The translations under genes were made by a program, and so were the position numbers. A DNA stretch of 64,000 nt from Limonium bicolor. Lineage: Eukaryota > Streptophyta > Magnoliopsida > Caryophyllales > Plumbaginaceae. A model generated the notes under the pieces. The model did not search any database. It saw only the letters and a list, made by a program, of their open reading frames with translations, and was not told the origin of the DNA. The stretch spans positions 2,170,001-2,234,000 of the forward strand of contig CM041779.1 of the NCBI GenBank assembly GCA_023374045.1, read 5' to 3'. This document shows, piece by piece, positions 1 to 38,548 of this stretch; position 1 is the stretch's first letter; the number at the start of each line of letters is the position of its first letter.

Positions 1-390
1 GCTGACCCCCTAGGGGGAACGTTTTTAGTGTGCAGGTACTTGAAGCTGACCACCGTTCGAGAGAGTAGGACGGGGACTGCTGTGAGCATGGGTAGTTAAA
101 TTGTAATTACTTATGCGTTTGAGTGAGGTGTAAGTCCGAGTATGTTATCGGCATCCGTATATTGTAGACTCGGTATAGTAGAGATATGAATTGAGTATTG
201 TATTTGTATGAAGTACTCGGTTGTTCCAGTTCATCAGACCGTTACGGTAAGTAAGAAAGGCCTGGTTAGCCACATGGGTGGCTAACGGCGTTGTTTCACC
301 CCTCGTTGTAACTAGAGTTCCGCTGCGTGAGTAGGAGTAATTAGTAACGGTTTAAGAGATAATGACGAGATTAACGGTTGGGGTGTTACA
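1..390 (+). repeat. 3' part of the 5' LTR of the LARD-like element
   Basis: This copy matches 9316-9706 and ends in TTACA directly before the spacer and primer-binding site. It holds a perfect CCCCCTAGGGGG palindrome at 6-17 and an AG/GT junction at 35/36, both paralleled in the Tekay element. The LTR start lies outside the window. Confidence 0.9.
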
Positions 391-9315: not shown

Positions 9316-9350
9316 GCTGACCCCCTAGGGGGAACGTTTTTAGTGTGCAG
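9316..9350 (+). promoter_or_regulatory. LTR-end palindrome and AG/GT junction (3' copy)
   Basis: Second copy of the CCCCCTAGGGGG palindrome (9321-9332) followed by a T-run and GCAG/GT. The Tekay LTRs hold CCCCCTCGGGGG, a T-run and CTTGCAG/GTAAG in the same order at 14054-14090. Confidence 0.5.
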
Positions 9351-9706
9351 GTACTTGAAGCTGACCACCGTTCGAGAGAGTAGGACGGGGACTGCTGTGA
9401 GCATGGGTAGTTAAATTGTAATTACTTATGCGTTTGAGTGAGGTGTAAGTCCGAGTATGTTATCGGCATCCGTATATTGTAGACTCGGTATAGTAGAGAT
9501 ATGAATTGAGTATTGTATTTGTATGAAGTACTCGGTTGTTCCAGTTCATCAGACCGTTACGGTAAGTAAGAAAGGCCTGGTTAGCCACATGGGTGGCTAA
9601 CGGCGTTGTTTCACCCCTCGTTGTAACTAGAGTTCCGCTGCGTGAGTAGGAGTAATTAGTAACGGTTTAAGAGATAATGACGAGATTAACGGTTGGGGGT
9701 GTTACA

Positions 9707-10322: not shown

Positions 10323-10803
10323 CGAAATACCCCAAACTTAGATATGGTGTTTAAATGATAAACTAAGATATAAGGAGGCTAAATAATGCCTTAGAAACAT
10401 TAAGAAACATTTCTAATCAAAGAAAATATAAGGAAACACCAAAAGAGCAGTTTTAAGCAAAAACGTGCTCTAAGCTTGGAGAGACATGGGAGAGTACCCA
10501 ATATTGTTCTAAGACCTTAGTAATATCCTAATGGTCATTTTAAATCAATTACCAAAGAAAACCAAGCTTGAAAACAAGTTAAAACACAAAATGTGCTTTA
10601 AGGAGTCTTAAAGCACGTTTTTGAAAATTGTCTTGTAAATGAGTTTTGAATGGCTAAATGTCCATCATTACTCTTTAATTAATATGTGTACTATATAGTA
10701 TCACATTTGGAGGTCTATATCAATGGGAAATCAAAAATTTCACAACAATGTGCCTTGTTTTTGATGAATAGTGAATTTATTAAGCTAGTTTATAACATAA
10801 GTC

Positions 10804-10810
10804 TATATAA
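10804..10810 (+). promoter_or_regulatory. Candidate TATA box of the 5' LTR
   Basis: TATATAA about 480 bp into the LTR, followed by pyrimidine-rich leader sequence. The same box is at 21168-21174 in the 3' LTR. If used, roughly 3.6 kb of LTR would be transcribed as leader. Confidence 0.5.
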
Positions 10811-11005
10811 GTGAGACATTTGGTCAACAAAGACTAAACTACCCTCATTCACTAAAGGGGGCCGGTTTCTTTAAGTGTGACTCACCACACTTATCTAACT
10901 AAGTAAAGAGAAAGCAAATAAGTAAGTTATAAGCATAAAACACTATTCACCTTTTAAGATAAATATCACTTTTGCTTACCTCTCTCCTCACTTCTTCATT
11001 TTCCC

Positions 11006-11263
11006 TTGTTGCCCACGATTTCTTGCTCTCTTTCTCTTCTCCATTCACGTAGAGCTCACCTCCATGAAAGCTCCACCTTCTCTTGCACACCACTTGCTCA
11101 TTTAAGCTCCAAATCCAAAAACAATACATATTCCTCTTTTAGCTCAAGCTCCTCCTTCCTATCTTTTCAAAACTTCAAGAGCTTCATTTTGGTGCCAAGT
11201 CAAACCACCATTAGAGGAGGAAATTCAAGTTTGGAGACTCCATTGGCATCTCCATTCTCTTAA
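11006..11263 (+). CDS. Short LTR leader ORF, serine-rich, doubtful
   Basis: An 85-codon serine-rich frame starting about 200 bp after the TATA-like box. A near-identical 86-codon version is in the 3' LTR at 21370-21630; a 3-base net length change keeps both open. No domain recognised. It may be an upstream ORF that limits translation of downstream gag, or an unselected frame. Confidence 0.3.
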   Translation: MLPTISCSLSLLHSRRAHLHESSTFSCTPLAHLSSKSKNNTYSSFSSSSSFLSFQNFKSFILVPSQTTIRGGNSSLETPLASPFS

Positions 11264-11615
11264 GTAAAGAAAGTGTAAGAAAATCTAGGTTTCCACCATT
11301 TTCTTCACATGACCGAAAATATATACTCATGGGACTCCATGTTTATGCCTTGTTCTAGCTTGTTTCTACTCTTCAAAGGGGAGAGGAGGTCCTTCTTGCT
11401 TCACATCCAAGTTGTCTTGAGAAACCAAGGTAAAACAATCACATTAATACCTTAAAACATTTTTTAACCTAGGGTTTGTTCCTTAGGGTTGATGTGTTAT
11501 CTAGTACTCATTGGAGTCATTGGATATTGGTTAGAACATTGGCAAGGAGAATCACATTGGTGACCGAGATTGAACAAAGAAAACCTAAGGAGAAAAGTTA
11601 AAGCTTGTGAGAAAC

Positions 11616-11634
11616 AAGGTAAATTACTTACCTT
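11616..11634 (+). promoter_or_regulatory. Palindromic splice-donor-like motif in LTR
   Basis: AAGGTAA (11616-11622) and TTACCTT (11628-11634) form an inverted repeat containing a donor-like AAG/GTAA. A similar palindrome exists in the LARD LTR at 6721-6741. Confidence 0.4.
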
Positions 11635-12637
11635 AAGTGTCTTGTTGTTTAAGGGAATGAGATGTGGGTATATGATGAGTTTAGTGTTTAGTTTATATGG
11701 GAGGTGCTATTAAACCTAGGAGAAACAATGTCTATACTTGTGAACTTGTGACTAAGGAGCAAATGAGAAGAGATAGTTTAAGATATAAAGGTGAAGTACA
11801 AGAAGCATTTTATTTCAATGGGAGCCTTGTTGAGTGTATTCGCAGGTTGAAGGCATATATATGTGGAAATTCAGTGGTTAAGATTATTGTCATTTAAGGG
11901 CCTAAGTGCCAAGCATTTTAAGTTTAAGCATTATATGATGATGTGGTGAAGTTTTAGTGTAAATGGGTGTTAAGTGTTGTGATGAGAATTTGTGTGGTAT
12001 TGGTTGTTTGATGGAGAAAACCATGTGTTAGGAAGTATTATATACTAGAGAACCCATGGCGAAATTTAAAGGAAAGTTTAAGTGTTAAGATATCCTAAGG
12101 GAATTTAATGATTAAGAAAGTACTATGAGTGTTCTATGGGTTGTCTTGATGAAAAAGGGTGAGAATAAGGTGTTTCTAAGGACTCATAATGACTGAGGCA
12201 TTACTAGGAAGGATTAGAAATCAAGAGAGTGTATAGGAATATTTAGGACTTAGGCAAATGTTGGTGCACAACTAGGAAGAGATAATGTGATGATGATGGA
12301 AGTTTAACTTGTTAAGGAACTTTAAGTAAATGCTTAAAAGAGTTTAGATAGTGAGAGATGCTTGGGAGATGATGTTATAGTGGTGAAGAAAACATTTGGC
12401 ATAGTGGCTACACTAGGTATGAACCACCACCTAGAAACCTAGAGGAAAACATTACAAGTGTTAGCATTATTACAAGGAAAATGCATAATGACTAAGGTGG
12501 ATCTTGGTGGATGATTTAAGGTATTTTAAGGAGGGCTTAAGGTGTATTTGAGGTGCCCAAATGAGGTTATAACATATGAGGATATATGAGGAGAAGTTTG
12601 GAGTTAAAAAGGAATTTAGAAACAAGTTTTTAGAGCC

Positions 12638-12957
12638 GACCGGCCTTAGGACCGGACTTGCAAGGTCGGTCGGGCTCTGTTACACTACCGGGAAATGTTT
12701 CTGGAATCGACCGGACTTGGGGACCGGACTTACAAGTCCGGTCGGGCTTGTTTTGTGAGAGGAAAATGTTTCTGGAATGGACCGGACATGGGACCGGACT
12801 TGTCAAGTCCGGTCGGCATGAATTTAGTACGGATTATAAGTCTCTGGAATCGACCGGACATAGGACCGGACATGTAAGTCCGGTCGGAGTGAATTTTCCA
12901 ACGGTAAAGGTACTGGAATGGACCGGACTTGGCAAGTCCGGTCGGTAAGTCCGGTCG
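12638..12957 (+). repeat. Array of five palindromic units, period ~71 bp (5' LTR)
   Basis: Units start near 12638, 12709, 12780, 12852 and 12921. Each combines GACCGGAC(T/A)T with AAGTCCGGTCGG, so each can fold back on itself. A pure A-run (12963-12980) follows. The duplicate array in the 3' LTR is at 23010-23334. Confidence 0.9.
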
Positions 12958-14053
12958 AGCCTAAAAAAAAAAAAAAAAAAGAAATTTTAATTTCTAAAAA
13001 TGGTAATGGGTAATGAGGTATGCCCTTGGTAGGGTAGTAATGATTGGGACCCTAAGAACTTGAGGAATTAAGTTAAGATTAAGTATAAGTTTTAATGTTC
13101 AAGTTAAGTTTGTAAGATTAAGTGATAAAGACTTGGGAGGTTATTGAATGGAAGTCCTTAGGGACTAAGTGAGTTAAGTAAGGTGCAAATAACTAATAAC
13201 CTAAAAATGAATGAATGTTTTAGGTTTGTGAATTGGGACCCCGAAGAAGATTAGTCAAACAACGATCGACGGTGAACGGTACAATCCTTTTCGTGACCTG
13301 CTTGCTAACGAGGTGTCCCTCGGCTTGTGTGCTATCTGTTTATTTGCTATGACTAAAACAAGATAAAGCATGCAACCGGTTATATTGTTCTCGTTGTGTT
13401 TGTGTTATATTTACACTAACCCCGCGGCTTGAGAATGTTACTAACCAAGTTTAGTACTTACTGAGTTAAGAATAAGAGTTAAGTTTGATGGTTGTTGGTT
13501 AATGCCCGTAAGGCTTAGCTAGCACATGGTGTTTAAGATGTCTACTAACTGGAACTTGAGTGAGGAAACCCGGGACCGATCTCCGGTCATGCATGCTAAG
13601 GAAAGGGGGACGGTATCTGAATCAGATCCGCCCTCCGCTTAAGGACTTGTCTTCGGACTTGTAGCCTAGGGCCGGTTGCCGGCTCAGCTACGCTGGACTC
13701 CCGTCCAGAGTAGGTGGCATTAAGATGGTGCGGTGGGATCACCTAAATCCCAGGTTCGAATTAAGCTACAACCAATCCCTTCCAGGAAAGGTTTGTATAC
13801 TGAGATTAAGATTAAGATTGATTAAGATTAAGGTAAGGAAAGAAATGAGGACTAAGGAGGGGGTACTAACCCACTTGTTAAGGGACGCTTGAGTCGTTCA
13901 TTGCTTGTGAACTATATATGTTCATCTGTGGTTATTGTTATTGCACTTCATATTATGTTTGTGTATGTAATCAATTTCCATGCTATCGACAATTAGTCGT
14001 CGTAGCCCCGTTAGCTTGGGGGCCATGAGAGGGTGTACCAGCATTCGTGCTGA

Positions 14054-14090
14054 CCCCCTCGGGGGCTATTTTTACACTTGCAGGTAAGAG
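14054..14090 (+). promoter_or_regulatory. LTR-end hairpin and AG/GT double splice site
   Basis: CCCCCTCGGGGG (14054-14065) is followed by a T-rich stretch and CTTGCAG/GTAAGAG with the junction at 14083/14084. The sequence reads as an acceptor and as a consensus donor at the same point. The arrangement recurs at 24455/24456 and, with base changes, in the LARD LTRs. Confidence 0.45.
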
Positions 14091-14429
14091 GCCCATGAGG
14101 ACGCACTACGAGAGTAGGAGCGGTTAGACTTAGGAGGGGACATTTATTTTGAGTTCGGGTTGCGCCTGTGCACCCGACTGTTCATATTAAACTGTTGTAA
14201 GTTTGAGATTACGTTTGAGATACTAGTACTCGGTTGGTGGTGGGATTGTGGATGTTAATGTTTTGAGTTGGATAAGTATTTTGGTTAAGTATTGTAAATA
14301 TAAGCCGGTATATTCTAACGATCAGACCGTGGCAAGGTCCAGGTGTTGTTTATTTCCGCTGCGACGTATTCGATTAAGTGTTCAGATTGCGATAACCACG
14401 ATAGGCTTTGGATGGGGTGTTACAAAAAG

Positions 14430-14457
14430 TGGTATCAGAGCGTAGTTACGCTCTGAT
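14430..14457 (+). promoter_or_regulatory. tRNA-Met primer-binding site inside a hairpin
   Basis: TGGTATCAGAGC at 14430-14441. Bases 14434-14444 pair with 14447-14457 (11 bp) around a two-base loop. Compared with the LARD element the stem bases differ but pairing is kept. Confidence 0.88.
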
Positions 14458-14643
14458 CAAGAAATACCGGATATAAGTAACCACCGAGTTAGGATTAAGT
14501 TAAGGAATAAGTGTTGGTTAAGGGTGTGAGAAGTTAGAGTGAGTAGAGTCAGATGACCACTAATAAGTGTGGATTGTCTTTACCGTCTACGGACGTTAAA
14601 ATTTACTAACCAAACAATGGTGAATGTGAATCTAATGTAAGTT
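14458..14643 (+). other. Untranslated leader between primer site and gag
   Basis: About 190 bp with no frame of note. It probably holds packaging signals, but no specific structure was identified. Confidence 0.5.
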
Positions 14644-15975
14644 ATGCTTGTTCAGATGGCAGGACGCCCTAGAGGAGGCCGAGGTCGCGGCCGGGGTGAG
14701 GATATTCCAGGGATACCTGGAGGGCAGACGATCGCAGAGATCGTAGCTGCCGCTTTAGGGCATATGGGCTACCAGCCTGGTGTGGGTGCACCACCTCCAC
14801 CGCCACAGCCTAGGGAACCAAACTGGGTGAAGAGTCTTGCTGATCTTCGACCCGCTCACTTCAAGGGGGAGACCGATCCCGCCAAGCTTGAGGCGTACAT
14901 CTCCGAGCTGGAGACCGCTTTCGAGACCCTTGATGTCCCTGCTGGGATCAAGGTGCGCTTAGCTGCTTTCTACCTGAAGGGGGCGGCGGGCGATTGGTGG
15001 AAGCTGGTGAGGGCCGAGCATGTGGCCAACCCAGAGTTCGGCTGGGAGCAGTACACCGCCTTGCTACGGGCAAAGTACTACCCCGCCCATGTCCAGACGA
15101 AGAAGCGCTTGCAGTTGGATGCGCTTAAGCAGTCGGACAAGATGACAGTGGACGAGTATTACTCAGAGTTCACTGCCTTGCTCCGTCTTCTGCCAGGTCT
15201 AGGGTATTCTGACCAGATCTTGGTGGACCGCTTCTATGGCGGGCTTAGCCATCGACTCCGCTACGGCATGGGGCCGACGAGTTACACTACCTTGCAGGTA
15301 ATAAGAATGATTGAGAATTGAGTAAGTGATGAATAAGATTTAGTTATGATGAATAAGTATGACTAATACCATGGAAAAGCAGGAGTGCTATCATGCCGCT
15401 GCTAAGGTTGAGATTACCGTCCAGCTGAGGGACGAGGAGAATGCGAAGAGGAAGAGTGCTGGGAAGAGCTCAGAGAGTCAAGGGCAAGGAGGGTACAAGA
15501 AACAGAAGTACCAGCCTCAGGCCCAGAAGAACAGAACCCGAAGGGAAGGAGGAAAAGGAGAAGGCTTCGGAAGAGCCATTGAAGCTGACTTACGCGATTG
15601 CAGCTACACCCACTCGCTCTAAGGCGCCAAAGGGGATCTGAGACTGAGAGAGGAGCCGGTGGTGGCTACCAGCGACGCTTCATCTGTAGATGGTGTCACA
15701 AGGACCACCCCGGGCTCGACTGCAAGGGAAATAAGGTGGAGTGCAACTTCTGCGGAGTGTATGGGCACCGGGCATACGAGTGTTACCGGAACCCTGCTAG
15801 CAGAGCCTATAGGCCCGACACCAGGGGCAAGGGCAAGACCGATCAGGGAGCTGGATCTGACGGTCAGAGGAAGTGCAGCAGCCGGCGGACAAAAACCCAC
15901 GGGCGACCCAGAAGACGGGGCCCACTCTACACATGGTGGATCGGGACGATGAGCCTGAGCCCTCATCGAGGCCAG
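14644..15975 (+). pseudogene. gag: gag (capsid and nucleocapsid), interrupted
   Basis: The Gag polyprotein forms the virus-like particle. The first part (14644-15321) has an Arg/Gly-rich N-terminus, a proline run and the retrotransposon Gag domain, with the AAGDWWK and RFYGGL motifs typical of Ty3/Gypsy capsids. An 85-nt intron-like segment (15298-15382) then interrupts it, and the capsid frame resumes in phase after it. A basic linker follows, and then two zinc knuckles: a C-x2-C-x3-H-x4-C variant near 15685-15723 and a canonical C-x2-C-x4-H-x4-C near 15742-15783. The linker and knuckles lie in successive frames, so at least two single-base shifts are present, and a third before the acidic C-terminal tail around 15915-15975. 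Start choice: the ATG at 14644; a second ATG four codons later (14659) is an alternative. Confidence 0.85.
15298..15382 (+). other. Intron-like segment inside gag (85 nt)
   Basis: Starts GTAATAAG directly after TTGCAG and ends AAAGCAG. A plant-type branch site, GACTAAT, lies about 15-20 bases before the acceptor. It is AT-rich unlike the GC-rich gag around it and contains in-frame stops. Its removal joins two capsid parts in phase 0. If it stays, Gag ends at 225 codons without zinc knuckles. Confidence 0.7.
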
Positions 15976-16108
15976 GTACCACTATAACCATTTAGTAATA
16001 AAACTACCTGCTTACCGCATTATCATGCATGTTTGGTGAAATATATGAGTTAAGTAAAAATAAGATGAGATTAGAACCTAAGTAAGATATAACCTACTAC
16101 CACTTTAG
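15976..16108 (+). other. Candidate intron between gag and the AlkB-like ORF
   Basis: AT-rich stretch beginning GTACCA after GGCCAG and ending CACTTTAG. The gag tail frame stops at 15993 if it is not removed. Splicing here would bring gag next to the AlkB domain, but the phase is off by one base in this sequence. No coding feature is seen within it. Confidence 0.45.
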
Positions 16109-16109
16109 G

Positions 16110-16845
16110 AAGATTCAACATTGCTACCCTATACCATCTACATCTAACCCGGAGCACACCGACATCGAAACCACACACTTTCCAACCGAACAATGTCAGG
16201 TTATCCGCCCAGGTATGATTTTATTAAGGGGATACCTGACACCCGACGCACAAATAGCCATCATCAGGAGTGCAATCAACTAGGAATGGGACCGGGAGGT
16301 TTTTATACACCGGAGTACCCAGGGGGAGCAAGGATGAAATTAAAGATGATGAGCTTGGGCAAGGATTGGAATCCGTATGCCAAGAATTACCAAACCACAA
16401 GGGAGCAAGATGGAGTCTCACCACCGGGAATACCCGAAGAGTTCCATCCAGTTATTACACAAGTCATGGAAATCGCTCAGCAGTTGGAGCTGAACCGATT
16501 CCAGACATCCAGCCAGACATTTGCATTGTAAACTTCTACGAAAAAGATGGGAAACTGGGACTACACCAGGATAAGGACGAGACAACGGAGTCTCTCGAAA
16601 GAGGGATACCCGTAGTGTCTTGGTCCATTGGAGATGATGCGGAGTTTTTATACGGCGAGCAGAAGCGTGCGGACCGTGCAGATAAGATAATACTTAAGTC
16701 AGGTGATGTATTAATTTTGGGAGGAGAATCAAGGATGTTATACCATGGGATTAAGAGAATCAAGCTGAATACAGCACCGCCAGCAGTAATCAATGCGACG
16801 CACATGAGACCAGGAAGATTAAACCTAACCTTTAGACAATATTAG
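16110..16845 (+). pseudogene. AlkB/ALKBH1-like Fe(II)/2-oxoglutarate dioxygenase inside the retrotransposon
   Basis: AlkB-family enzymes oxidatively remove methyl groups from nucleic acids. The segment reads as a near-complete ALKBH1-type domain: an N-terminal PGMILLRGYLTP block (from 16209), GPGGFYTPEY and MKLKMMSLGK blocks (~16290-16370), PDICIVNFY and LGLHQDKDE, then GDVLILGG, MLYHGI and RLNLTFRQY. The iron ligands His (16564-16566), Asp (16570-16572) and distal His (16744-16746) are present, as are the two arginines of the C-terminal RxNxTxR motif (16816-16836). The domain is intronless, in sense orientation, and ends with TAG at 16843. Two single-base frame changes (near 16280 and 16485) split it; real decay and assembly error are both possible. 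No in-frame ATG lies upstream of the conserved N-terminal block, so it may be made as a Gag fusion. Capture of a host cDNA is the likely origin. Confidence 0.9.
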
Positions 16846-17060
16846 CCGTGTAATGCTAGAATGAGATGAGAAATGAGATGTAAGATTGAAGCACATGTTG
16901 TAAACAGGATGGTCATGAATAAAATAACAGTGTTGTTCATATAATTGTTACGACTCTTGTTATACCATCAATACTCATGGAGCTTGTGAATACAATTAGG
17001 TTATGGACTCGGTACGGAAGGTGCACTAAGCATACTCACAGAGGCACAGGCCGACGTTAG
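16846..17060 (+). other. Spacer between the AlkB-like ORF and protease
   Basis: About 215 bp, AT-rich, with no frame. It ends with CACAG/GC (17049/17050), an acceptor-like site in the correct phase for the donor at 15975, except that a TAG lies at 17058-17060 directly before the protease reading frame. Confidence 0.5.
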
Positions 17061-20000
17061 CGGTACTATCTCACCGGCACCTTTCCGATCAATGGAATTG
17101 AGGCATCAGTTCTCTTCGACTCAGGGGCCTCGCATACCTTTGTCTCTGCATCATTTGCGAGCAGGTTGGGGCTAGACGCTGATGAGCTACCCGACTTCAC
17201 GGTTACGCTCCCGTCTAAGGAGAAGGTTCGTTGCACTCGTTACTACCGAGGAGCCACCATCAGAATTAAGGGGGAAGACTTCCCAGTCAGTTTCATTGAG
17301 TTCAGTAAGCTAGGATTTGATGTTATCTTCGGGATGAACTGGTTGGAGCGGCACAAGGGACGTATCCTCTGCGCCGAGCATAGATTGCTGCTCAGGAGTC
17401 CGTCTGGGGTAACAATATCATACCGCCAGAGGCCCAGGGAGCCTTCGACTAAGATCATCACCGCCATGGCAATGTACAAAGAATTAAGGAGAAATGAAGA
17501 AGTATACCTCTGCTATGTACAGGACATAGAGAGAGACCCCGAGTTCGACCCCGACTTACTGGTAGTGTCGGAGTTCCCCGACTTATTTCCACGGGAACTG
17601 CCCGGCATGCCACCCACTCGGGAGGTAGAGTTCACCATTGAGCTGCTACCTGGTACCGGACCGATAGCCAAAGCACCATACCGTATGGCTCCGGCAGAAA
17701 TGACTGAGTTAAAAGAACAACTGAAAGATTTGTTGGATAAGGGATTCATTAGACCAAGTGTGTCACCATGGGGAGCGCCAGTCCTCTTCGTGAAGAAGAA
17801 GGATGGTAGTCTCCGCCTCTGCATCGACTACAGAGAGCTGAATGCAGTGACAGTGAAGAATAAGTACCCACTACCCCGCATTGACGATCTGTTCGATCAG
17901 TTGAAGGGAGCATCTGTGTTCTCCAAGATTGATCTCAGATCGGGGTATCATCAGATAGCCATTAAGGAGGGAGACATTGAGAAGACGGCATTCCGGACAC
18001 GATACGGCCACTATGAGTTTACAGTGATGCCGTTCGGTTTGTCGAACGCGCCAGCGAAGTTTATGGATCTGATGAACCGCTTGTTCCGGGAGCAGCTGGA
18101 CAAGTCGGTGGTGGTTTTTATTGATGATATATTGATATATTCAAAGTCTAAGGTTGAGCATGAGGAACATTTGAGAAGGGTGTTAGAATATTAAGGGAGA
18201 ACCAGCTATATGCTAAGTTCTCCAAGTGTGAGTTTTGGCTTGACCAGGTCTCTTTCCTAGGTCATGTCATCTCAGATGCTGGGATCGCAGTGGATCCAGC
18301 AAAGATTGATGCCGTACGTACCTGGCCAAGGCCGAAGACTGTTACCGACATCAGGAGCTTTCTCGGTCTGGCAGGTTACTACAGGAGGTTTGTTAGAGAT
18401 TTCAGCAAGGTCGCGAAGCCGATGACCAGTCTGATGAAGAAAGATGCACCATTTCTATGGACAGTCGACTGTGAGAGATCATTTCAGCGCTTAAAGGACT
18501 CACTGACCACTGCACCGGTTCTGACCATTCCAGACGGTACAGAGGGCTTTGAGGTTTATTGTGATGCATCCGGCAGAGGGCTGGGTTGCGTGCTCATGCA
18601 ACATGGCAAGGTGGTGGCATATGCCTCACGCCAGTTGAAGAAACATGAGGAGAACTACCCCACACATGATTTAGAGCTGGGAGCTGTAGTCTTCGCTTTG
18701 AAGATATGGCGCCACTACTTATATGGGGTTAGTGTTACGATCTACACCGATCACAAGAGTTTGAAATACATATTCACTCAGAAGGAGTTAAATCTTCGAC
18801 AGAGGAGATGGTTAGAATTTCTGAAAGACTATGACATTGACCTCCAATACAAAGAAGGGAAGGCCAATGTTGTAGCAGATGCCCTGAGCCGTCGAGCACA
18901 CTCACTCCATTCGCTAGTTTCTTTCTCCAGCTTGGTTGATGAGGTGCGAGAGGCTCAGAGGACTGATGAGTATATGAGAGAGGTCAGACAGAAGCTGACA
19001 GATGGTACCTTCGAGAGTCAGAAATACGACTTCAGACTTCATGATGATGATCTGATCAGACTTAAGGGCCGATTATGCATACCACGAGGTAACACGGATC
19101 TGAAAGACCGTATACTTAGAGAATCACACTGTTCTTCAGTTTCCATCCATCCGGGAGCCTCTAAAATGTATAAAGACATGAAGAGATACTTCTGGTGGTC
19201 GGGGATGAAGACAGATGTTACCGAGTTCGTCTTGAGGTGTCTCACATGCCAGAAGGTGAAATTCGAGCACAGACGACCGGGCGGAATGGTACAGTCGATG
19301 CCAGTTCCGGAATGGAAGTTCCATGATATCTCCATGGACTTCGTAGTTGGACTTCCACCTGCTAGGGGAGGTCTCAACATGATATGGGTGGTGGTGGATC
19401 GCCTTACCAAAGTAGCCCGATTCATACCGATGAAGGATACTTGGAAGGTGACCAAATTAGCTGAGTTGTTTGAGAAAGAAATCATGAGACATCATGGCAT
19501 ACCGAAGACCATAGTGTCAGATAGAGATACCAGATTCCTTTCGAGGTACTGGAGAGCTACCAGAGAAGCGTTGGGTACAGAACTCAAACTGAGTACCGCG
19601 TTCCATCCTCAGACAGATGGTCAGACTGAGCGTACTATTCAGACACTCGAGGACATGCTGAGAGCATGTGCCTTAGACTTCCAGGGCAGTTGGATTGACA
19701 GATTGCATCTGATCGAGTTTTCATACAACAACAGCTATCACGCTTCGATCAAGATGGCACCTTTTCAAGCGTTGTACGGTAGACCATGTCGTACACCGCT
19801 CTGCTGGGATGAGTCGAGTGAGACGGTCATTATAGGACCAGAGTACTTAGAACAATTCAGGCTGAGGTTCAGCAAATCAGGGAGAACATGAAAGCTGCTC
19901 AATAGGCAGAAGTCGTATGCTGATGTTCGACGACGAGACCTGGAGTTCGCAGTGGGCGACCAGGTATTTCTGCGAGTATCACCGATGAAGGGTGTATTCA

Positions 20001-20373
20001 GGTTTGGGCAGAAGGGCAAGTTAAGCCCGAAATTTGTTGGTCCTTATGAGATTACGGAGCGGGTGGGCCCAGTTGCTTACAGGTTGAATTACCTGCTGAG
20101 CTGGGTAAAGTGCATGATGTCTTTCATGTTTCACAGCTAAAGAAATACATGCACCACCCCTCCCATGTGTTAGAACCTGAGAGGTTGACTTTAGAACCAA
20201 ATATGAGATCCGTGGAGACTCCTCAGAGAATCTTGGACAGTAAGACTAGGGACACTCGCCACAAGTCAGTGCGACTGGTGAAGGTTCTCTGGTCTAACCA
20301 GGATGTCGAAGAGGCCACGTGGGAATTAGAGGATAAGATGAGGGCGAAGTACCCTTCTTTATTTACTGACTAG
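17061..20373 (+). pseudogene. pol: pol: protease, RT, RNase H, integrase, chromodomain-like tail
   Basis: This polyprotein processes Gag-Pol, copies RNA to DNA and integrates it. In order: protease with DSGA at 17118-17129; RT with the FIDD catalytic motif (aspartates at 18123-18128); RNase H with Asp, Glu and Asp at residues 92, 129 and 154 of the frame starting at 18290; integrase with an HHCC zinc site (H280, H287, C317, C320) and the D350, D411, E447 triad; and a C-terminal tail ending EEATWE...KYPSLF, the CR-type chromodomain-like end of Tekay elements, which may guide integration to heterochromatin. Frame changes near 18190, two around 19865-19910 and one near 20090 break it; nearly all are single-base. 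Catalytic residues are intact. I chose the start at the first codon after the TAG at 17058. Confidence 0.93.
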
Positions 20374-20690: not shown

Positions 20691-23600
20691 TGAAATACCC
20701 CAAACTTAGATATGGTGTTTAAATGATAAACTAAGATATAAGGAGGCTAAATAATGCCTTAGAAACATTAAGAAACATTTCTAATCAAAGAAAATATAAG
20801 GAAACACCAAAAGAGCAGTTTAAGCAAAAACGTGCTCTAAGCTTGGAGAGACATGGGAGAGTACCCAAATATTGTTCTAACCTTAGTAATATCCTAATGG
20901 TCATTTTAAATCAATTACCAAAGAAAACCAAGCTTGAAAACTTTAAAACACAAAATGTGCTTTAAGGAGTCTTAAAGCACGTTTTTGAAAAATTGTCTTG
21001 TAAATGAGTTTTGAATGGCTAAATGTCCATCATTACTCTTTAATTACATGTGTACTATATAGTATCACATTTGGAGGTCTATATCAATGGGAAATCAAAA
21101 ATTTCACAACAATGTGCCTTGTTATTGATGAATAGTGAATTTATTAAGCTAGTTTATAACATAAGTCTATATAAGTGAGACATTTGGTCAACAAAGACTA
21201 AACTACCCTCATTCACTAAAGGGGGCCGGTTTCTTTAAGTGTGACTCACCACACTTATCTAACTAAGTAAGAGAAAGCAAATAAGTAAGTTATAAAGCAT
21301 AAAACACTATTCACCTTTTAAGATAAATATCACTTTTGCTTACCTCTCTCCTCACTTCTTCATTTTCCCTTGTTGCCCACGATTTCTTGCTCTCTTTCTC
21401 TTCTCCATTCACGTAGAGCTCACCTCCATGAAAGCTCCACCTTCTCTTGCACACCACTTGCTCATTTAAGCTCCAAATCCAAAACAAAATACATATTCCT
21501 CTTAGTTAGCTCAAGCTCCTCCTTCCTATCTTTTCAAAACTTCAAGAGCTTCATTTTGGTGCCAAGTCAAACCACCATTAGAGGAGGAAATTCAAGTTTG
21601 GAGACTCCATTGGCATCTCCATTCTCTTAAGGTAAAGAAAGTGTAAGAAAATCTAGGTTTCCACCATTTTCTTCACATAACCGAAAATATATACTCATGG
21701 GACTCCATGTTTATGCCTTGTTCTAGCTTGTTTCTACTCTTCAAAGGGGAGAGGAGGTCCTTCTTGCTTCACATCCAAGTTGTCTTGAGAAACCAAGGTA
21801 AAACAATCACATTAATACCTTAAAACATATTTTTAAACCTAGGGTTTGTTCCTTAGGGTTGATGTGTTATCTAGTACTCATTGGAGTCATTGGATATTGG
21901 TTAGAACATTGGCAAGGAGAATCACATTGGTGACCGAGATTGAACAAAGAAAACCTAAGGAGAAAAGTTTTAAAGCTTGTGAGAAACAAGGTAAATTACT
22001 TACCTTAAGGTGTCTTGTTGTTTAAGGGAATGAGATGTGGGTATATGATGAGTTTAGTGTTTAGTTTATATGTGGAAGGTGCTATTAAAACCTAGGAGAA
22101 ACAATGTCTATACTTGTGAACTTGTGACTAAGGAGCAAATGAGAAAGGAGATAGTTTAAGAATATAAAGGTGAAGTACAAGAAGCATTTTATTTCAATGG
22201 GAGCCTTGTTGAGTGTATTCGCAGGTTGAAGGCATATATATGTGGAAATTCAGTGGTTAAGATTATTGTCATTTAAGGGCCTAAGTGCCAAGCATTTTAA
22301 GTTTAAGCATTATATGATGATGTGGTGAAGTTTTAGTGTAAATTGGGTGTTAAGTTTTGTGATGAGAATTTGTGTGGTATTGGTTGTTTGATGGAGAAAA
22401 ACCATGTGTTAGGAAGTATTATATACTAGAGAACCCATGGCGAATTTAAAGGAAGTTTAAGTGTTAAGATATCCTAAGGGAATTTAATGATTAAGAAGTA
22501 CTATGAGTGTTCTATGGGTTGTCTTGATGAAAAAGGGTGAGAATAAGGTGTTCTAAGGACTCATAATGACTGAGGCATTACTAGGAAGGATTTAGAATCA
22601 AGAGAGTGTATAGGAATATTTAGGACTTAGGCAAATGTTGGTGCACAACTAGGAAGAGATAATGTGATGATGATGGAAGTTAAACTTGTTAAGGAACTTT
22701 AAGTAAATGTTTAAAAGAGTTTAGATAGTGAAGATGCTTGGGAGATGATGTTATAGTGGTGAAGAAACATTTGGCATAGTGGTTACACTAGGTATGAACC
22801 ACCACCTAGAAACCTAGAGGAAAACATTACAAGTGTTAGCATTATTACAAGGAAAATGCATAATGACTAAGGTGGATCTTGGTGGATGATTTAAGGTATT
22901 TTAGGAGGGCTTAAGGTGTATTTGAGGTGCCCAAATGAGGTTATAACATATAGGATATATGAGGAGAAGTTTGGAGTTAAAAGGAATTTAGAAACAAGTT
23001 TTTAGAGCCGACCGGCCTTAGGACCGGACTTGCAAGGTCGGTCGGGCTCTGTTACACTACCGGGAAATGTTTCTGGAATCGACCGGACTTGGGGGACCGG
23101 ACTTACAAGTCCGGTCGGGCTTGTTTTGTGAGAGGGAAAATGTTTCTGGAATGGACCGGACATGGGACCGGACTTGTCAAGTCCGGTCGGCATGAATTTA
23201 GTACGGATTATAAGTCTCTGGAATCGACCGGACATAGGACCGGACATGTAAGTCCGGTCGGAGTGAATTTTCCAACGGTAAAAGGTACTGGAATGGACCG
23301 GACTTGGCAAGTCCGGTCGGTAAGTCCGGTCGAGCCTAAAAAAAAAAAAAAAAAAAAAAAAGAATTTTATTTCTAAAATGGTAATGGGTAATGAGGTATG
23401 CCCTTGGTAGGGTAGTAATGATTGGGACCCTAAGAACTTGAGGAATTAAGTTAAGATTAAGTATAAGTTTTAATGTTCAAGTTAAGTTTGTAAGATTAAG
23501 TGATAAAGACTGGGAGGTTATTGAATGGAAGTCCTTAGGGACTAAGTGAGTTAAGTAAGGTGCAAATAACTAATAACCTAAAATGAATGAATGTTTTAGG

Positions 23601-24795
23601 TTTGTGAATTGGGACCCCGAAGAAGTTAGTCAAACAACGATCGACGGTGAACGGTACAATCCTTTTCGTGACCTGCTTGCTAACGAGGTGTCCCTCGGCT
23701 TGTGTGCTATCTGTTTATTTGCTATGACTAAAACAAGATAAAGCATGCAACCGGTTATATTGTTCTCGTTGTGATTGTGTTATATTTACACTAACCCGCG
23801 AGACTTGAGATTGTTACTAACCAAGTTTAGTACTTACTGAGTTAAGAATAAGAGTTAAGTTTGATGGTTGTTGGTTAATGCCCGTTAAGGCTTAGCTAGC
23901 ACATGGTGTTTAAGATGTCTACTAACTGGAACTTGAGTGAGGAAACCCGGGACCGATCTCCGGTCATGCATGCTAAGGAAAAAGGGGGACGGTATCTGAA
24001 TCAGATCCCCCTCCGCTTAAGGACTTGTCTTCGGACTTGTAGCCTAGGGCCGGTTGCCGGCTCAGCTACGCTGGACTCCCGTCCAGAGTAGGTGGCATTA
24101 AGATGGTGCGGTGGGATCACCTAAATCCCAGGTTCGAATTAAGCTACAACCAATCCCTTCCAGGAAAGGTTTGTATACTGAGATTAAGATTAAGATTGAG
24201 ATTAAGATTAAGGTAAGGTAAGGAACTGAGACTAAGGAGGGGGACTAACTTGTTAAGGGAACGCTTGAGTCGTTCATTGCTTGTGAACTATATATGTTCA
24301 TCTGTGGTTATTGTTATTGCACTTCATATTGTTTGTGTATGTAATCAATTTCCATGCTATCGACAATTAGTCGTCGTAGCCCCGTTAGCTTGGGGCCATG
24401 AGAGGGTGTACCAGCATTCGTGCTGACCCCCTCGGGGGCTATTTTACACTTGCAGGTAAGAGGCCCATGAGGACGCACTACGAGAGTAGGAGCGGTTAGA
24501 CTTAGGAGGGGACATTTATTTTGAGTTCGGGTTGCGCCTGTGCACCCGACTGTTCATATTAAACTGTTGTAAGTTTAAGATTACGTTGAGATACTAGTAC
24601 TCGGTTGGTGGTGGGATTGTGATGTTAATGTTTTGAGTTGGATAAGTATTTTGGTTAAGTATTGTAAATATAAAGCCGGTATATTCTAACGATCAGACCG
24701 TGGCAAGGTCCAGGTGTTGTTTATTTCCGCTGCGACGTATTCGATTAAGTGTTCAGATTGCGATAACCACGATAGGCTTTGGATGGGGTGTTACC
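20691..24795 (+). repeat. 3' LTR of the Tekay-type element
   Basis: Pairs with 10323-14424. It includes a TATA-like box (21168-21174), the leader frame (21370-21630), the palindrome array (23010-23334), an A-run and the AG/GT site (24455/24456). The last base reads TTACC where the 5' LTR has TTACA. Confidence 0.93.
23010..23334 (+). repeat. Array of five palindromic units (3' LTR copy)
   Basis: Same units as 12638-12957 with one- to three-base length differences. A longer A-run follows it than in the 5' copy. Confidence 0.9.
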
Positions 24796-26243
24796 AAAGT
24801 ACACTTTTATTAACCGGAAACAGATTACAAGGTCTATCTGACATTACATGCGGAAGCCCAACTTCAAGTCCTATTTGGAAGGCATTAATAGGCGTTCGTG
24901 ATCTCGTACGATATGGTCAACGATGCTCTATTTTCGATGGACGAACCACTCCGGTTACCTCACGTTGGATTATCGGCAAGTCAGGTGGCCAGCCATTCCT
25001 TTGGAAGTTCCCTTCATGTCAGGTGCCATCTGCAAAGGTAGCAGATTTTATTACTAGCGCAGGTACGTGGAATCTTCCTCTTCTTCAACAGCGTTTCACC
25101 CCTGATGATGTTGGTTTGATTACCAAAATTCCGTTATTCTGTGCTTCGCCTAGTCATGACTGTTGGATGTGGGGCCTCACACCCTCAGGTAAATTCACTG
25201 TTAAATCTGCTTATTATGCGGATAGGCTTCTCTCGACATCTACTTCTGCATCTTCAAGCGATCCTACTTCATTTGGTCGGGTTTTTCAGCGATTACGAAA
25301 ATGTGACATCCCCCCACGTATTCGTCTCTTTGGTTGGAAGCTTATTCATGGTTATATCCCTTGTAAAGCGACAGTGCAGCGACGCTTGCACTCCTCCCTT
25401 TATCCCACTTGTGCTTTCTGTGATCAGCCAGAAACGATCGCCCATACTTTTATCCACTGCCCTACAGTGCTGACTTACTGGTCTACCATTGATATTTCAC
25501 GGCCCAGCATGTTGCATTCTGACCTGGCTTTCACTGATTGGTTCCTTCACCAATGCAGTTCCTTGCCTATGTCGTTGCTCACTCAACTAATTATCTTCTT
25601 ATGGCACCTTTGGTTTGCACGCTGTCAGGCCTCGCACAATACCTCGATCCCGTTCAGCTGGGGCTGGTATCAAGGGGATAGCTTCTTGGACGCTGCTCAA
25701 ACTGCAGCAACCTCGGATTCTCGGCTCTTGCAGGATCACCGTCTTGAGCACCCAGATTATGTCGAAATTACGGTTGACGGAAGTATAGATACTCACAAGC
25801 ACCCGGGCTTGGGTTTCATGGTGTCTCGGCATAAAGTTCCTCTTTCTGCTGGCGCTCATGGGTTTGTAGCCAATCTCCTTCCTTCCACAGTTGAATGTTT
25901 GGCTTTGCAGTTTGCTCTGCGTCATGCGCGACATGAAGGTCATACCCATCTCAGACTCTTGGCGGACAGTCAACAGATGATTTGATACCTCTCTGCCACA
26001 TCTACTACATCGCTGCTTCCAGAATCCACAACGATTCTGAATTCTGTCTTAGCTAATTTGACCATTTTCATGATATTTATTGGTTTTATGTACCTCGTTT
26101 GGCAAATCTAGAGGCTCACAACCTAGCATCTACTGCTAGAATGTCGCAACTTATATGTTGCTGTTGGAAAGTGGCTGACTTTCTAGACTTTGTTCGAAAT
26201 CTCAGTTCTTAATATATATGTGATGGTTTTTTCAAAAAAAAAT
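24796..26243 (+). pseudogene. 3' end of a LINE: zf-RVT and RNase H domains
   Basis: The frame open to 25985 shows the zinc-binding RT C-terminal region (a WGLTPSGKFTVKSAY block, then a C-x2-C and H-x4-H/C cluster around 25400-25460) followed by an RNase H fold with ITVDGS, VECLALQFAL and LLADSQ supplying the acidic residues. After a frameshift near 25980 the remaining RNase H end can still be followed to about 26210 (PRLANLEAHNLAS-like in another frame). A short A-run (26236-26244) closes the element. RT and endonuclease are missing on the left, where the Tekay LTR begins. The open frame appears to start inside the LTR (24714), which is a chance fusion. Confidence 0.85.
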
Positions 26244-33917: not shown

Positions 33918-36900
33918 CTAAATTCTCAGAAGTTCAAGCAGATCAAACCTCTTACAAACTCTATAATTCTTCCTGGTAAATTGTAACCGAAATCTACCCC
34001 ATCTTAATTTCAACTCCAGTTTAATATCTACAGCACATTGTTTCCAATTAGAAACACCATCAGCAAAAATCGCCCCATTCCTCATTTTCCAGATCTGATA
34101 TACCACAACACCCACAGCAGCACACCGCAACTTATATACCAAAGCATTTTTACACCTAGATCTCCACAAACAAGCCATACACTCAGAAAAGCGTATCGGC
34201 AGCTTGCAGTCCAGCCAGTTGTGAATAACATCTATAAACACCCGTTTACTGAAATCGCATTCAAAAAATAAGTGATCTCGAGATTCTTCTTGCCCACGGA
34301 ATATACAATAAGCAGAAATATTTAAGTTCCATCTCCGCAATCTATCCTTACTAGCCAAGCAATTATGGCATGCCAGCCACCAAGTAAAGGAGGCGTGAGG
34401 GGTGCAGTAGTTTGACCAAAGGATCAAATCCCAACCTTCTTCAGGTAGTGGAGGATGAATAATCTCAAACACCTTGCGCACATTAATGGAGCCATGTTCC
34501 TCAATCCACTTCTCCAACTCTCCTATAAGATTCTGGCTCACCACCTCATCTCTTAACTTCAAGCAATTATTCCACCAAAAGGCATGAGTGCCTCTGAGTT
34601 TTACACCTCAAATATCCTCATTTTTCAATAGGTAGACTCTACACCAACGAACCAAAGCAGACTGTTCAGCTCCAGCAGAATTCAATCGCAAGAAAATGCA
34701 TAGTATAGCAGCTTTGTTCCATGACAGTATTTCTTTTATGCCTAAACCCCCATTACTCTTAGGTCTGCATATAGTACTCCAAGAAACAGGGGCTTTCCTG
34801 CTGTTCTCATCCCCACTCCACAGGAAACTTCTACATTTCCTAACAATCATCTGTACAACATATTTGGGAAACAAAAAAATGTTAGCCCAAAATCTCTGAA
34901 TGCTCATTAACGTACTATCAACCAATTGTAATCTTCCTGCGTAACTAAGTTTCCTTGTAGCCCAATGCGAGATACGAACAGTGATCTTATTTAACAGAGG
35001 GACAAAATCTGCAGACTCAAGTCTATGAGTGGACAGTGGAACACCCAGATACTTAACTGGTAAATCACCTTCTTCAAAACCCAATATGTCCAATATTTTC
35101 TGTTTCTCCTCATCTTGAACCCCACCAAAATAAGCCTTGCACTTTAGATGACTAAAGAACAAACCAAAAGACCGAGAAAATTCATCCAGTAGTCCTTTAA
35201 TAATACTAATGGACCCAACATCACCTCTGCAAAAAATCAGAAGATCATCCGCAAAACACAAGTGACTCAACCCAATCTTACCACACTTAGGATGGTAATT
35301 AAAATTCGGATTATTACTGACCGTATCTAACAGTCTGCTCAAGTACTCCATGCAGAGAACAAAGAGAAGAGGGGATAAAGGGTCCCCCTGCCGAAGACCC
35401 CTCTCTCCCTTAAAAAACCCTTTACTCTGGCCATTAATCAAAATGGAATAATAAGGTGTGGACACACAACACATAATCCATTTAACAATCTTATCCTGAA
35501 ACCCCAAACCCACCAAGACTTCCTCCAGAAATTCCCAACTTACACAATCGTATGCTTTATGGATATCCACCTTAAAAGCACAACGAGGTGAAATATTTCT
35601 CCTCTTATACCCCTGAATAATCTCCTGGCACAACAAGACATCTACCTTTAACAAAAGCCCCCTGACAATCATTTACAATTTCAGGCAAGACAAGTCTAAT
35701 TCTAGCAGCAAGCACTTTCGAGATAATTTTGTATATCACATTACAACAAGCAATTGGCCGCAAATCTTTAACTTGGCTAGGATTCGCAACCTTAGGAACA
35801 AGAGTAATGAGAGTGGTATTCACCTGCTTAAGGAGCTTACCCTTCCCAAAGAAATCTCTAACAGTAGCACAAATATCCTTACCAAGAATAGTCCATGCAG
35901 ATTTGAAAAACAGAGAGCTGAAACCATCTGGACCAGGTGCCTTCGAATTCTTAATGGACTTTAGCGCATCCCAGATCTCACTATCAGACACCAGACAAGA
36001 AACTTTATCATTCATTTCACCATAAACTTTCATACCTCTGAGAAACACAGTCTGATCACAGATGCTTCTAACAGAACACTTCTTACCCAGAAGGTTAGTA
36101 AAATATTCCACTATATGCTCACTTATTTCCTCCTCAGAAGTAAATCTCGTACCCTGATCATCCAGTAAAACATGAATCCTCGACTTACTTCTTCTAGAAT
36201 TCATGATTCTGTAAAAATAAGCATTTGCCTCATCACCCATCTGTAACCAGTCAACTTTAGCTTGCTGAGCCACATGTGAATTCAGACAGCTCGACAACTG
36301 ATTAACCTCTTGAATCTGTTTATTTTCCAGCTTAATCAGACTAGTATTAAACGGGTCACCCATCAACCTTCTTTGAATATCATACAGCATTTCCATGCTT
36401 GACTGCACCTTATCCCTCGGGTGTGAAAACTTTTCTTTATTCAAACCTTTCAACCTGACCTTCACCCCTTTCATTCTCTGCACAATTCTATACATAGGAC
36501 ACCCCTCCACTCTAGCAGACCACGCCTCTCTGACTAGCTCCAGAAAGTTCTCATCAGAGGCCCACAAATTTCTAAATCTGAACAAAGAGGAAACCTTGAC
36601 AACATCATTCTCAATCATAACCAGAATGGGAGAATGATCTGATATATCAGGGGGACAAAACTCGGCACAAAAAAACAGAAAAGTATTCAGCCAGCTATTA
36701 TTTACCAAAGCTCTATCCAGCTTACAGTAAACTCTTGAGGAAGGATCCTGAATGTGCTTATTTGACCAAGTAAATCTCGCACCAGAAAACTTTAGATCAT
36801 GAATATCAATACTCTCAGCACAATTAGCAAATTGATCATCAATATCATCAACCACACCATTCCCTACCAATTTATCCCCATGCTGAAGGAGGCAATTAAA

Positions 36901-37329
36901 ATCACCTAACACCAACCATGAATCCATCATCAACAAACCCACCTTCCTCAAATCATCCCAGAGGCTAACTCTATCAGTAGCTTTATTCGCAGCATAAACT
37001 ACTGATAACCAGAAAAAGTATTTACCATTTTTCGAAGAAACCTTGCAATGAATCAGCTGATTACTCATCCCTACACAGTGAACCTCCCAAACATTATCAT
37101 CCCAAAGCAACAAAATTCTACAGTTTTTATCCAATTCCACATTAGATATCGCTTTCCACTTCCTTTTCCACCAACCAGAAATAGAATCAAACTTATTATC
37201 CCGAACTCGAGTTTCCAAAATGGCAAATAAACTCACCTTATTAGCCGCATCAAAACTATCCACTGCAGCTCTCTTATTCGGGGCATTCAGCCCCCTAATA
37301 TTCCAGGAAGCAATGTGTAGCCTACCCAT
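33918..37329 (-). pseudogene. LINE ORF2: APE endonuclease and reverse transcriptase
   Basis: ORF2 nicks target DNA and primes reverse transcription there. From 37329: an endonuclease with SWNIRGLN near the N-terminus, GDFN in the middle and SDHSP near residue 240, then a linker into RT. A single-base shift near 35640 divides the RT finger region. The next frame (35672-34608) holds RQGDP at its residues 94-98 and the catalytic FADD at 140-143. A stop near 34608 then separates the last frame (34562-33918), a zf-RVT domain with a C...H...C cluster. No RNase H follows. Apart from one shift and one stop the protein looks intact. Confidence 0.9.
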
Positions 37330-38548
37330 TAGGTAGAATAGTATTCAGGCCCCCTTGCAAACTACCTCCTCTCCCTTTTCCACTATGCTCAAAACTCCTA
37401 CTCAAACTTCTCTTTGAGACCACAGTTGTCCACCCTTCGATCTTAGACTGATCAACCTCTTTACTAGAACCAGCCTCACTTATCCTAGCCTCAGGACCTC
37501 TATTCTCCATCTGGCTGTTAGGAACCCCACTACGAACTTCTCCCTCCTTAGGCGCAAAAACAACCTCTTGTTGATCATCCACTTCCTTTCCAATCACCTT
37601 CTGACACCGCGAGGATAAATGACCAAAACATCTACAAACCTCGCAATGCCAAGGACGCCATTCAAACACTATACGATGGGAATACCTATTTCCATCACCA
37701 TCCTCCAGAATTATTTCCTCTTTCGGTTTTACTTTAGCATCCAACTCAACAAGAATCCTAGCAAACCCTATCTTCTCCTTAAGAGTTGTCAGCTTATCAG
37801 CGAGAATCGGCCTCCCAATTTTGCTAGCTATCCTTCCCAACATACGAGGCGACCAAAATTGTAAATCGAGATTCGACAGTTTAACCCAACTGGAGTTGAA
37901 GATAAATTTGCGAGATCTAATTTACACCCAGGCGACCAAAATCGCAAGATTAAAGGCAGATTACCCCTCAAAAACCATGGCCCATTCTCCATAATCTGCA
38001 TCATCTCATCCCTATTCTCAAACCGAAAGACGAAAATACCTGCATCATTCTGATAAATCGATGACGAGGTGAACTTGCTCCACTTCAGACGGACAAATCT
38101 TTCCATCATTATAAACGAACACTGTAAGCCCATAGCAGCCCCAATAAGTGAATGTTGCCAGAATTCCACCTCCGATCTGACCTCCTCCTTATCAAATTTA
38201 AGCACCGGAGTGTCATCCTCTTGAAACGATTGTAGATTAAGACAGTTCTCCCTGTCTCGATTATGAGCAACGACATCTCTCTAAGACTTCTTCGCCTGAG
38301 GCACCTTCACGACCTCAACCACAGGATTCTGCCCAAAACTCTTTACCAGATCTCCCAGACCACCTCCTTTATCCGTCGCATCCTCCAGATCTACAATTAC
38401 ATCTTGCACCTTACCTGCATCACAACTTCCAAACGAGAGTCTTCTTCGGAGCACCCGACGAGACAACCGGTATACACTGATCTTTAGGAGTCGAAATTGC
38501 CGCCCCAAGCAAAGGAACATAAGCTTTCGGTTTGCGTCCTCTGCCCAT
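37322..38548 (-). pseudogene. LINE ORF1: DUF4283 and zinc-knuckle protein
   Basis: ORF1 proteins coat LINE RNA. The likely start is the ATG at 38548, giving MGRGRKPKAYVPLL, a usual plant LINE opening. Several frame changes (between about 38440 and 38200, and near 37840) split it. The middle part (38205-37828) is DUF4283-like with MENGPWFLRGNLPLILRFW. The final part (37843-37322) has W-x-C-E-V-C-x4-H-x4-C, the CCHC_4 zinc knuckle, then a charged linker. It ends eight bases past the ORF2 start, so the two ORFs overlap slightly. Confidence 0.85.

What the first reader, a model, noticed from the sequence alone, without database searches (positions are those of the whole stretch)
16110..16845. A Ty3/Gypsy retrotransposon carries an AlkB (ALKBH1-like) demethylase domain between gag and pol
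Seen: an ALKBH1-type domain in sense orientation inside a Tekay element bounded by matching LTRs, with all iron ligands (H, D, H) and both C-terminal arginines present. Known: AlkB dioxygenases remove methyl marks from RNA or DNA, and some plant RNA viruses carry an AlkB domain. Inference: the element may erase m6A, m1A or other methyl marks from its own RNA or from its DNA copy and so escape host control, a retrotransposon parallel to viral AlkB. I do not know of an established description of Tekay elements with this gene.
Basis: partly seen in the sequence, partly recalled or inferred. Interest (0 to 1): 0.92.

Follow-up and report, generated by a model that had tools for sequence, protein, structure and literature searches.

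The report
Plant retrotransposon family with AlkB exon
A family of young plant retrotransposons carries, between its two main genes, a gene resembling enzymes that strip methyl groups from DNA or RNA, and appears to join it by splicing to its own coat protein; this differs from the one earlier case that we found, in orchids.

Summary
The AlkB domain is real and not a passenger of one copy. In the window's own genome (2.92 Gb, unnamed) a DNA search scored 40 of 3042 first-look candidates; all 40 are 96-100% identical. All 40 lie before the same pol, and 39 follow the same gag. Catalytic codons are kept, by column, in 40 of 40. Variants shared between copies show purifying selection on AlkB (ratio 0.25), weaker than on gag or pol (0.08-0.09).

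AlkB is an exon between gag and pol. One fetched copy lacks exactly the 133-base GT-AG intron between gag and AlkB; a genome scan found three such junctions and no gag-pol junction. So a spliced Gag-AlkB RNA was probably reverse transcribed.

Six unplaced database proteins form a clade with it, apart from 37 ALKBH1 rows.

Against: AlkB is intact in only 5 of 40 copies, and 35 share one frameshift; indels here look partly like assembly error. No RNA data; activity untested; the sample is biased towards the window copy. Orchid Ty3/Gypsy elements with an ALKBH5-like domain are published (PMC9289625), so this is a new variant.

The parts
10324..14427 (+). 5' LTR of the element
   Evidence: 97.7% BLAST identity to 20692-24798; aligned, 36 substitutions in 4077 sites (0.88%) and 50 gap runs. 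No clear target-site duplication seen by eye.
14430..14441 (+). Primer binding site like those for tRNA-Met
   Evidence: Read by eye in the output; motif recalled, no tool test.
14641..15975 (+). gag exon, frame broken in this copy; ends at the donor CCAG|GT
   Evidence: PF03732 on 14641-15318; gag frame open for 415 codons up to the donor, zinc knuckle inside, in 1 of 39 copies.
15976..16108 (+). GT-AG intron between gag and AlkB, 133 bases
   Evidence: Missing exactly in copy L044; three such junctions in the genome, all without an extra base; donor GT in 38 of 38 copies that have the site; acceptor AG in all 39 copies listed.
16109..16845 (+). AlkB exon, own stop at 16843-16845; spread over three frames in this copy
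   Evidence: PF13532; frames; intact in 5 of 40 copies; selection; tree.
16846..17041 (+). Linker with a conserved splice acceptor (AG at 17040-17041) before pol
   Evidence: AG kept in 40 of 40 copies; pol has no ATG upstream of it in 37 of 40. No gag-pol junction found in the genome.
17042..20373 (+). pol exon: protease, RT, RNase H, integrase, chromodomain; frame broken in this copy
   Evidence: Pfam matches on the separate frames; open for 930 codons downstream of the acceptor in the best of 40 copies.
20692..24798 (+). 3' LTR of the element

Best explanation
A plant Ty3/Gypsy chromovirus family (probably Tekay) took up an ALKBH1-like gene long ago and has multiplied with it. SHOWN: AlkB lies at one fixed place between gag and pol in every copy examined, and three places in the genome join gag to AlkB exactly at GT-AG splice sites, which is what reverse transcription of a spliced RNA would leave. 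INFERRED: the element uses alternative RNA forms; unspliced RNA gives Gag, RNA spliced to the first acceptor gives a Gag-AlkB fusion, and RNA spliced to the second acceptor would give Gag-Pol. INFERRED: Gag carries the enzyme to the element's RNA or into its particles, where it removes methyl groups that hinder translation, packaging or reverse transcription (m1A, m3C or m6A in RNA; 6mA or alkyl lesions in single-stranded cDNA). The enzyme was under purifying selection while the family spread, but copies without a working AlkB may also have spread, perhaps served by others.
For: 40 of 40 scored copies, 96-100% identical, same place. Copy L044 lacks exactly 15976-16108; three exact junctions genome-wide, control pattern 0. 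Phase and open frames fit both acceptors; unspliced gag stops 6 codons past the donor in 34 of 39 copies (L044 among the 39), pol has 17 open codons and no ATG before its acceptor in 37 of 40. Shared variants in AlkB: 19 replacement, 21 silent, ratio 0.25, codon positions 9/8/23, p 0.005; wrong-frame controls 1.11 and 1.01, linker 0.87. Catalytic codons kept by column in 40 of 40. Clade with six unplaced proteins, 100/97, apart from 37 ALKBH1 rows. N-terminus of P0001 resembles the intron (7 of 1000 shuffles as high).
Against: AlkB intact in only 5 of 40 copies; one frameshift shared by 35 of 40. Frame-breaking indels per copy and kb: AlkB 4.27, gag 3.40, pol 2.80. Selection on AlkB weaker than on gag and pol, and the singleton-shared contrast is not significant for AlkB (p 0.067). 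No gag-pol junction in the genome, at exact match only. Two of the three gag-AlkB junctions were not read further, so they may be duplicates of one event. No RNA or protein data; surroundings of the related proteins not seen.
Confidence: 0.5

Rival explanations
1. Hitchhiker: an ALKBH1 cDNA or exon was caught once and multiplied with the element but does nothing for it; signs of selection come from a short useful period or from the host gene.
For: AlkB intact in only 5 of 40 copies and one frameshift shared by 35; the window copy is young, 0.88% between LTRs, although its AlkB is broken.
Against: Shared variants are biased to silent changes; conserved splice sites; a distinct clade with related, open proteins; many indels look like assembly error.
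Confidence: 0.22
2. AlkB is made as a separate protein, from the internal ATG of the exon (about 210 codons), not as a Gag fusion; the intron splicing serves something else.
For: The gene call of P0002 starts at the matching Met; the first Met in the open 251-codon frame lies there.
Against: A spliced junction in phase with gag exists; the exon upstream of that Met is also homologous to P0001.
Confidence: 0.15
3. Relic in this subfamily: AlkB worked in the ancestors, and the subfamily around the window copy has lost it and spreads without it.
For: The shared frameshift in 35 of 40 copies.
Against: Gaps outnumber substitutions between the LTRs of one element (50 runs against 36), which suggests assembly error; copies with and without the frameshift are mixed on the pol tree (about 4 changes, at least 2). 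The sample was drawn with a broken copy as query.
Confidence: 0.13

Closest known systems
Phalaenopsis Gypsy_Pa_2799 family with a 2-ODD (ALKBH5-like) ORF2 (PMC9289625; abstract, results parts 1-2 of 3 and discussion read)
   Same: Plant Ty3/Gypsy family that has multiplied with an AlkB-type domain; cofactor residues kept.
   Different: There: Tat lineage, sister to Ogre, 25 kb, Gag-Pol in one ORF and AlkB in a separate 565-aa ORF, ALKBH5/9-like, m6A activity shown in vitro. Here: chromodomain element of 14.5 kb, ALKBH1-like, between gag and pol, joined to gag by splicing, activity untested.
Ogre elements with a partly spliced intron in the coding region (cited in PMC6317226 and PMC12786077; passages only)
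   Same: Splicing controls which polyprotein an LTR retrotransposon makes.
   Different: There the intron separates parts of the polyprotein; here the interval holds an AlkB exon, and only the gag-AlkB splice is seen, as genomic retrocopies.
Plant ALKBH1, such as rice OsALKBH1 5xeg/5xoi
   Same: Best solved match by sequence and, for P0002, by fold (TM 0.83).
   Different: The element proteins form their own clade with a long stem, outside the 37 ALKBH1 rows compared.
AlkB domains of plant RNA viruses
   Same: A selfish genome carrying its own AlkB.
   Different: RNA viruses, not retroelements; no sequence comparison was made here.

Membership tests
AlkB family (PF13532) | Profile match above the curated cut-off | tested here: met
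   120.8 bits against 31.2
AlkB family (PF13532) | HxD...H iron ligands and two 2OG-binding arginines | tested here: met
   By column in 40 of 40 copies; which residues are ligands is recalled and from PMC9289625
AlkB family (PF13532) | Demethylase activity | not testable with these tools
   No assay
Plant ALKBH1 (host clade) | Falls inside the host ALKBH1 clade | tested here: not met
   Seven element-type rows split from 37 rows at 100/97; sister relation, midpoint root
Tekay chromovirus | Chromodomain after integrase | tested here: met
   PF00385, 25.7 bits against 25.1; weak
Tekay chromovirus | Place in an RT/RH/INT tree | not tested
   No lineage-labelled references at hand
Tekay chromovirus | tRNA-Met primer site | tested here: inconclusive
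   Motif read by eye, recalled; no tRNA of this plant compared
Phalaenopsis AlkB Gypsy family | ALKBH5/9-like AlkB domain | tested here: not met
   Nearest named proteins and solved chains are ALKBH1/AlkB; no direct comparison with ALKBH5
Phalaenopsis AlkB Gypsy family | Tat/Ogre lineage | tested here: not met
   Chromodomain present, absent in non-chromoviruses according to PMC6317226; no RT tree
LTR elements with a spliced coding intron | Spliced form shown | tested here: met
   gag-AlkB: L044 and two further places
LTR elements with a spliced coding intron | Splicing joins gag to pol | tested here: inconclusive
   Sites and phase fit; 0 junctions in the genome at exact match

The most novel reading that the evidence does not exclude
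A long-lived lineage of plant chromoviruses uses splicing to choose between Gag, Gag-AlkB and Gag-Pol, so that every particle carries its own nucleic-acid demethylase next to the reverse transcriptase. It would be a second, independent taking of an AlkB enzyme by plant Ty3/Gypsy elements, spread over several plant lineages.
Probability: 0.35. Interest if true: 0.9.

Novelty: new variant of a known kind. Interest (0 to 1): 0.76.

Why it matters
Two different plant Ty3/Gypsy lineages with different AlkB subfamilies, besides RNA viruses, would mean that methyl marks on nucleic acid are a recurrent barrier to mobile elements. A Gag-AlkB fusion also says where to look: in the particle. The splice junction seen in genomic retrocopies makes the expression question testable with ordinary RNA data.

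Tried and rejected
One-off passenger in one element: rejected, 40 of 40 scored copies carry it. L1-type processed pseudogene dropped into an element: no poly(A) run seen after the AlkB stop, and the same place in all copies. Viral-contig search with P0002: 2 pattern matches, 0 relatives. Linking the related proteins to pol by equal contig lengths: none of the 120 listed pol hits had those lengths (a capped list, and proteins above 1006 aa were not candidates). Primer-tRNA m1A58 as the substrate: put low, because retroviral plus-strand synthesis uses that mark as its stop (PMC13191261, passages). A linker control in the second selection script crashed, so the linker figure is only. Identity of the plant: not pursued; the last protein search went to AlkB. 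More distant copies and host ALKBH1 genes in the same genome: asked, never answered (P0001; P0007; DNA of another copy). Count of unspliced copies: not obtained. Novelty searches for AlkB in LTR elements; among the titles and abstract starts listed only PMC9289625 was to the point; PMC12786077, opened for passages, cites it, and PMC13317346, opened for passages, has no AlkB.

Full report
OBSERVATION. The stretch 16110-16845 encodes an AlkB domain in sense orientation (PF13532, 1.1e-34). It lies between a gag and a pol with a weakly matched chromodomain, inside LTRs of about 4.1 kb. In this copy the protein is spread over three frames. The closest solved structure by sequence is rice OsALKBH1. 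A model of the related protein P0002 (nine sequences; two of five models at mean pLDDT 71-72, three at 36) matches OsALKBH1 at TM 0.82-0.83 and the best E. coli AlkB chains at 0.71. The human and mouse ALKBH1 chains listed score 0.39-0.53, so the plant name ALKBH1 should not be read as human ALKBH1.

COPIES. The window lies in a 2.92 Gb genome. A DNA search with 16110-16845 gave 3042 first-look candidates. Forty were scored, and all match over nearly the whole query at 96-100%. The others were not scored, so 3042 is not a copy number. I fetched regions of all 40, the window's own included, reaching to about 19850 in window terms, so the ends of most copies were not seen. Gag, AlkB and pol are collinear in 38 of 40; L038 matches from 15634 on, and in L047 the gag side is replaced. 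Pol follows in 40 of 40. The sample is biased: these are the copies nearest to the window copy.

LAYOUT. Gag runs to a CCAG|GT that is kept in 38 of 38 copies with the site. Unspliced, it stops 6 codons later in 34 of 39 (L044 is among the 39). The AlkB exon starts after an AG seen in all 39 copies listed and ends at its own stop. Pol has no ATG and only 17 open codons upstream of an AG, kept in 40 of 40, in 37 of 40 copies; in 3 of 40 the stretch is longer and has one ATG. The gag phase at the donor fits both acceptors; gag is open for 415 codons to the donor in one of 39 copies. Locus L044 lacks exactly 15976-16108. A genome-wide scan with a free gap of 0-12 bases found three places, all without an extra base, one of them L044; the other two were not read further, so they may be separate insertions or duplicates. 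A like scan for gag joined to pol found none, at exact match to 25 bases. So splicing to AlkB is shown by genomic retrocopies, and splicing to pol is inferred from frames and acceptor alone.

SELECTION. Variants shared by two or more copies: AlkB 19 replacement and 21 silent (ratio 0.25; 0.34 with transitions weighted), codon positions 9/8/23, p 0.005. Singletons: 44 and 22 (0.56). Pol shared 0.08, gag shared 0.09 (40, 40 and 38 copies). An earlier alignment gave 43 and 20 for the AlkB singletons. AlkB read in the two wrong frames gave 1.11 and 1.01 for shared variants, and the linker 0.87 on eight variants. The contrast of singletons with shared variants is not significant for AlkB (p 0.067), though it is for gag and pol. 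Shared variants per kb are 105 in the intron, 53 in the AlkB exon and 51 in the linker, so the exon is not more conserved than the linker by this measure. I read this as purifying selection on AlkB while the family spread, weaker than on gag and pol. The catalytic codons are unchanged, by column and ignoring frame breaks, in 40 of 40.

FRAME BREAKS. A script counted 6 of 40 copies open from the GFYTPEY motif to the end; one of the six reads its middle in another frame, so 5 of 40 are intact. A single-base frameshift is shared by the other 35; it needs about 4 changes on the pol tree, at least 2 by well-supported branches. Frame-breaking indels per copy and kb are 4.27 in AlkB, 3.40 in gag and 2.80 in pol. 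The two LTRs of the window element differ by 36 substitutions (0.88%) but 50 gap runs, 37 of one base. More gaps than substitutions is unusual for real mutation and suggests assembly error in repeats, so broken frames here are weak evidence of death. With a recalled rate of 1.3e-8 per site and year, 0.88% is about 0.3 million years.

RELATIVES. Two protein searches with AlkB (1548 and 449 hits, 120 listed each) give six closest proteins, P0001-P0005 and P0063: 63-80% identical over the aligned part; four of them listed at 62-74%. The next rows lie at 42-56%. A tree of 45 rows separates these six and the family from 37 rows that I labelled host (36 named plants, one metagenome protein, picked by me from the hits) and a rice piece, at 100/97. 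An earlier 122-row tree of the C-terminal part, without P0063, puts 115 rows on one side and the family, five of the six and E. coli AlkB on the other (97). The first 28 residues of P0001, which lie before the exon, resemble the translated intron: 0 of 200 shuffles reach the score, 7 of 1000 (15 of 1000 with the window copy only), against 284 of 1000 for the linker. Of 14 other N-termini tried, one reached 11 of 200 and the rest 50 or more of 200. This hints that P0001 comes from an element of the same layout. The DNA around these proteins could not be fetched.

MECHANISM. Fusion behind the zinc-knuckle part of Gag would bring the enzyme to the element RNA and perhaps into particles. Candidate substrates are m1A and m3C (which block reverse transcription; recalled), m6A, or 6mA in single-stranded cDNA. 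ALKBH1 is reported to act on 6mA preferentially in single-stranded or unpaired DNA (PMC10469495, abstract and background read). These are inferences.

KNOWN CASES. PMC9289625 (abstract, results parts 1 and 2 of 3, discussion) describes orchid elements, sister to Ogre, with an ALKBH5-like ORF active on m6A in vitro; its screen of 121 angiosperm genomes reports the 2-ODD domain in two Phalaenopsis species only. Partly spliced Ogre introns are cited in PMC6317226 (passages and one section) and PMC12786077 (passages). The other searches (open-access library, no preprints) listed no other such case by title and abstract start. I therefore call it a new variant of a known kind.

Noticed in passing
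window 33921-37921, minus strand: LINE-like frames: zf-RVT, reverse transcriptase, a sub-threshold endonuclease match and DUF4283.
   Followed up: no
window 24690-25982: Frame with a zf-RVT match right after the boundary of the 3' LTR at 24798; probably a LINE remnant into which the element inserted or which abuts it.
   Followed up: no
window 1-390 and 9316-9706: Direct repeat, 99.7% identical; may be the LTRs of another young element cut by the window's start.
   Followed up: no
window 48624-49886 and 53161-54433: Direct repeat, 93.5% identical over 1276 bases; may be an LTR pair or a duplication.
   Followed up: no
window 12626-12957 and 22998-23332: Short internal repeats (72-76% alike) inside both LTRs.
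   Followed up: no
window near 15634: Most fetched copies have about 80 bases in gag here that the window copy lacks.
   Followed up: partly
L047, upstream of its AlkB exon: The gag side is replaced by unrelated sequence just before the AlkB acceptor; a nested insertion or a recombination.
   Followed up: no
G000 copies L009-L048 and the LTR pair of the window: Single-base gaps are more common than substitutions, which suggests assembly error in repeats of this genome.
   Followed up: partly
window 18164-19888: The 120 nearest listed pol proteins are only 46-59% identical, so the plant or the element lineage is poorly sampled.
   Followed up: no
window 16148-16531 and fetched copies: A second frame runs open through much of the AlkB exon in several copies; probably chance.
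   Followed up: no
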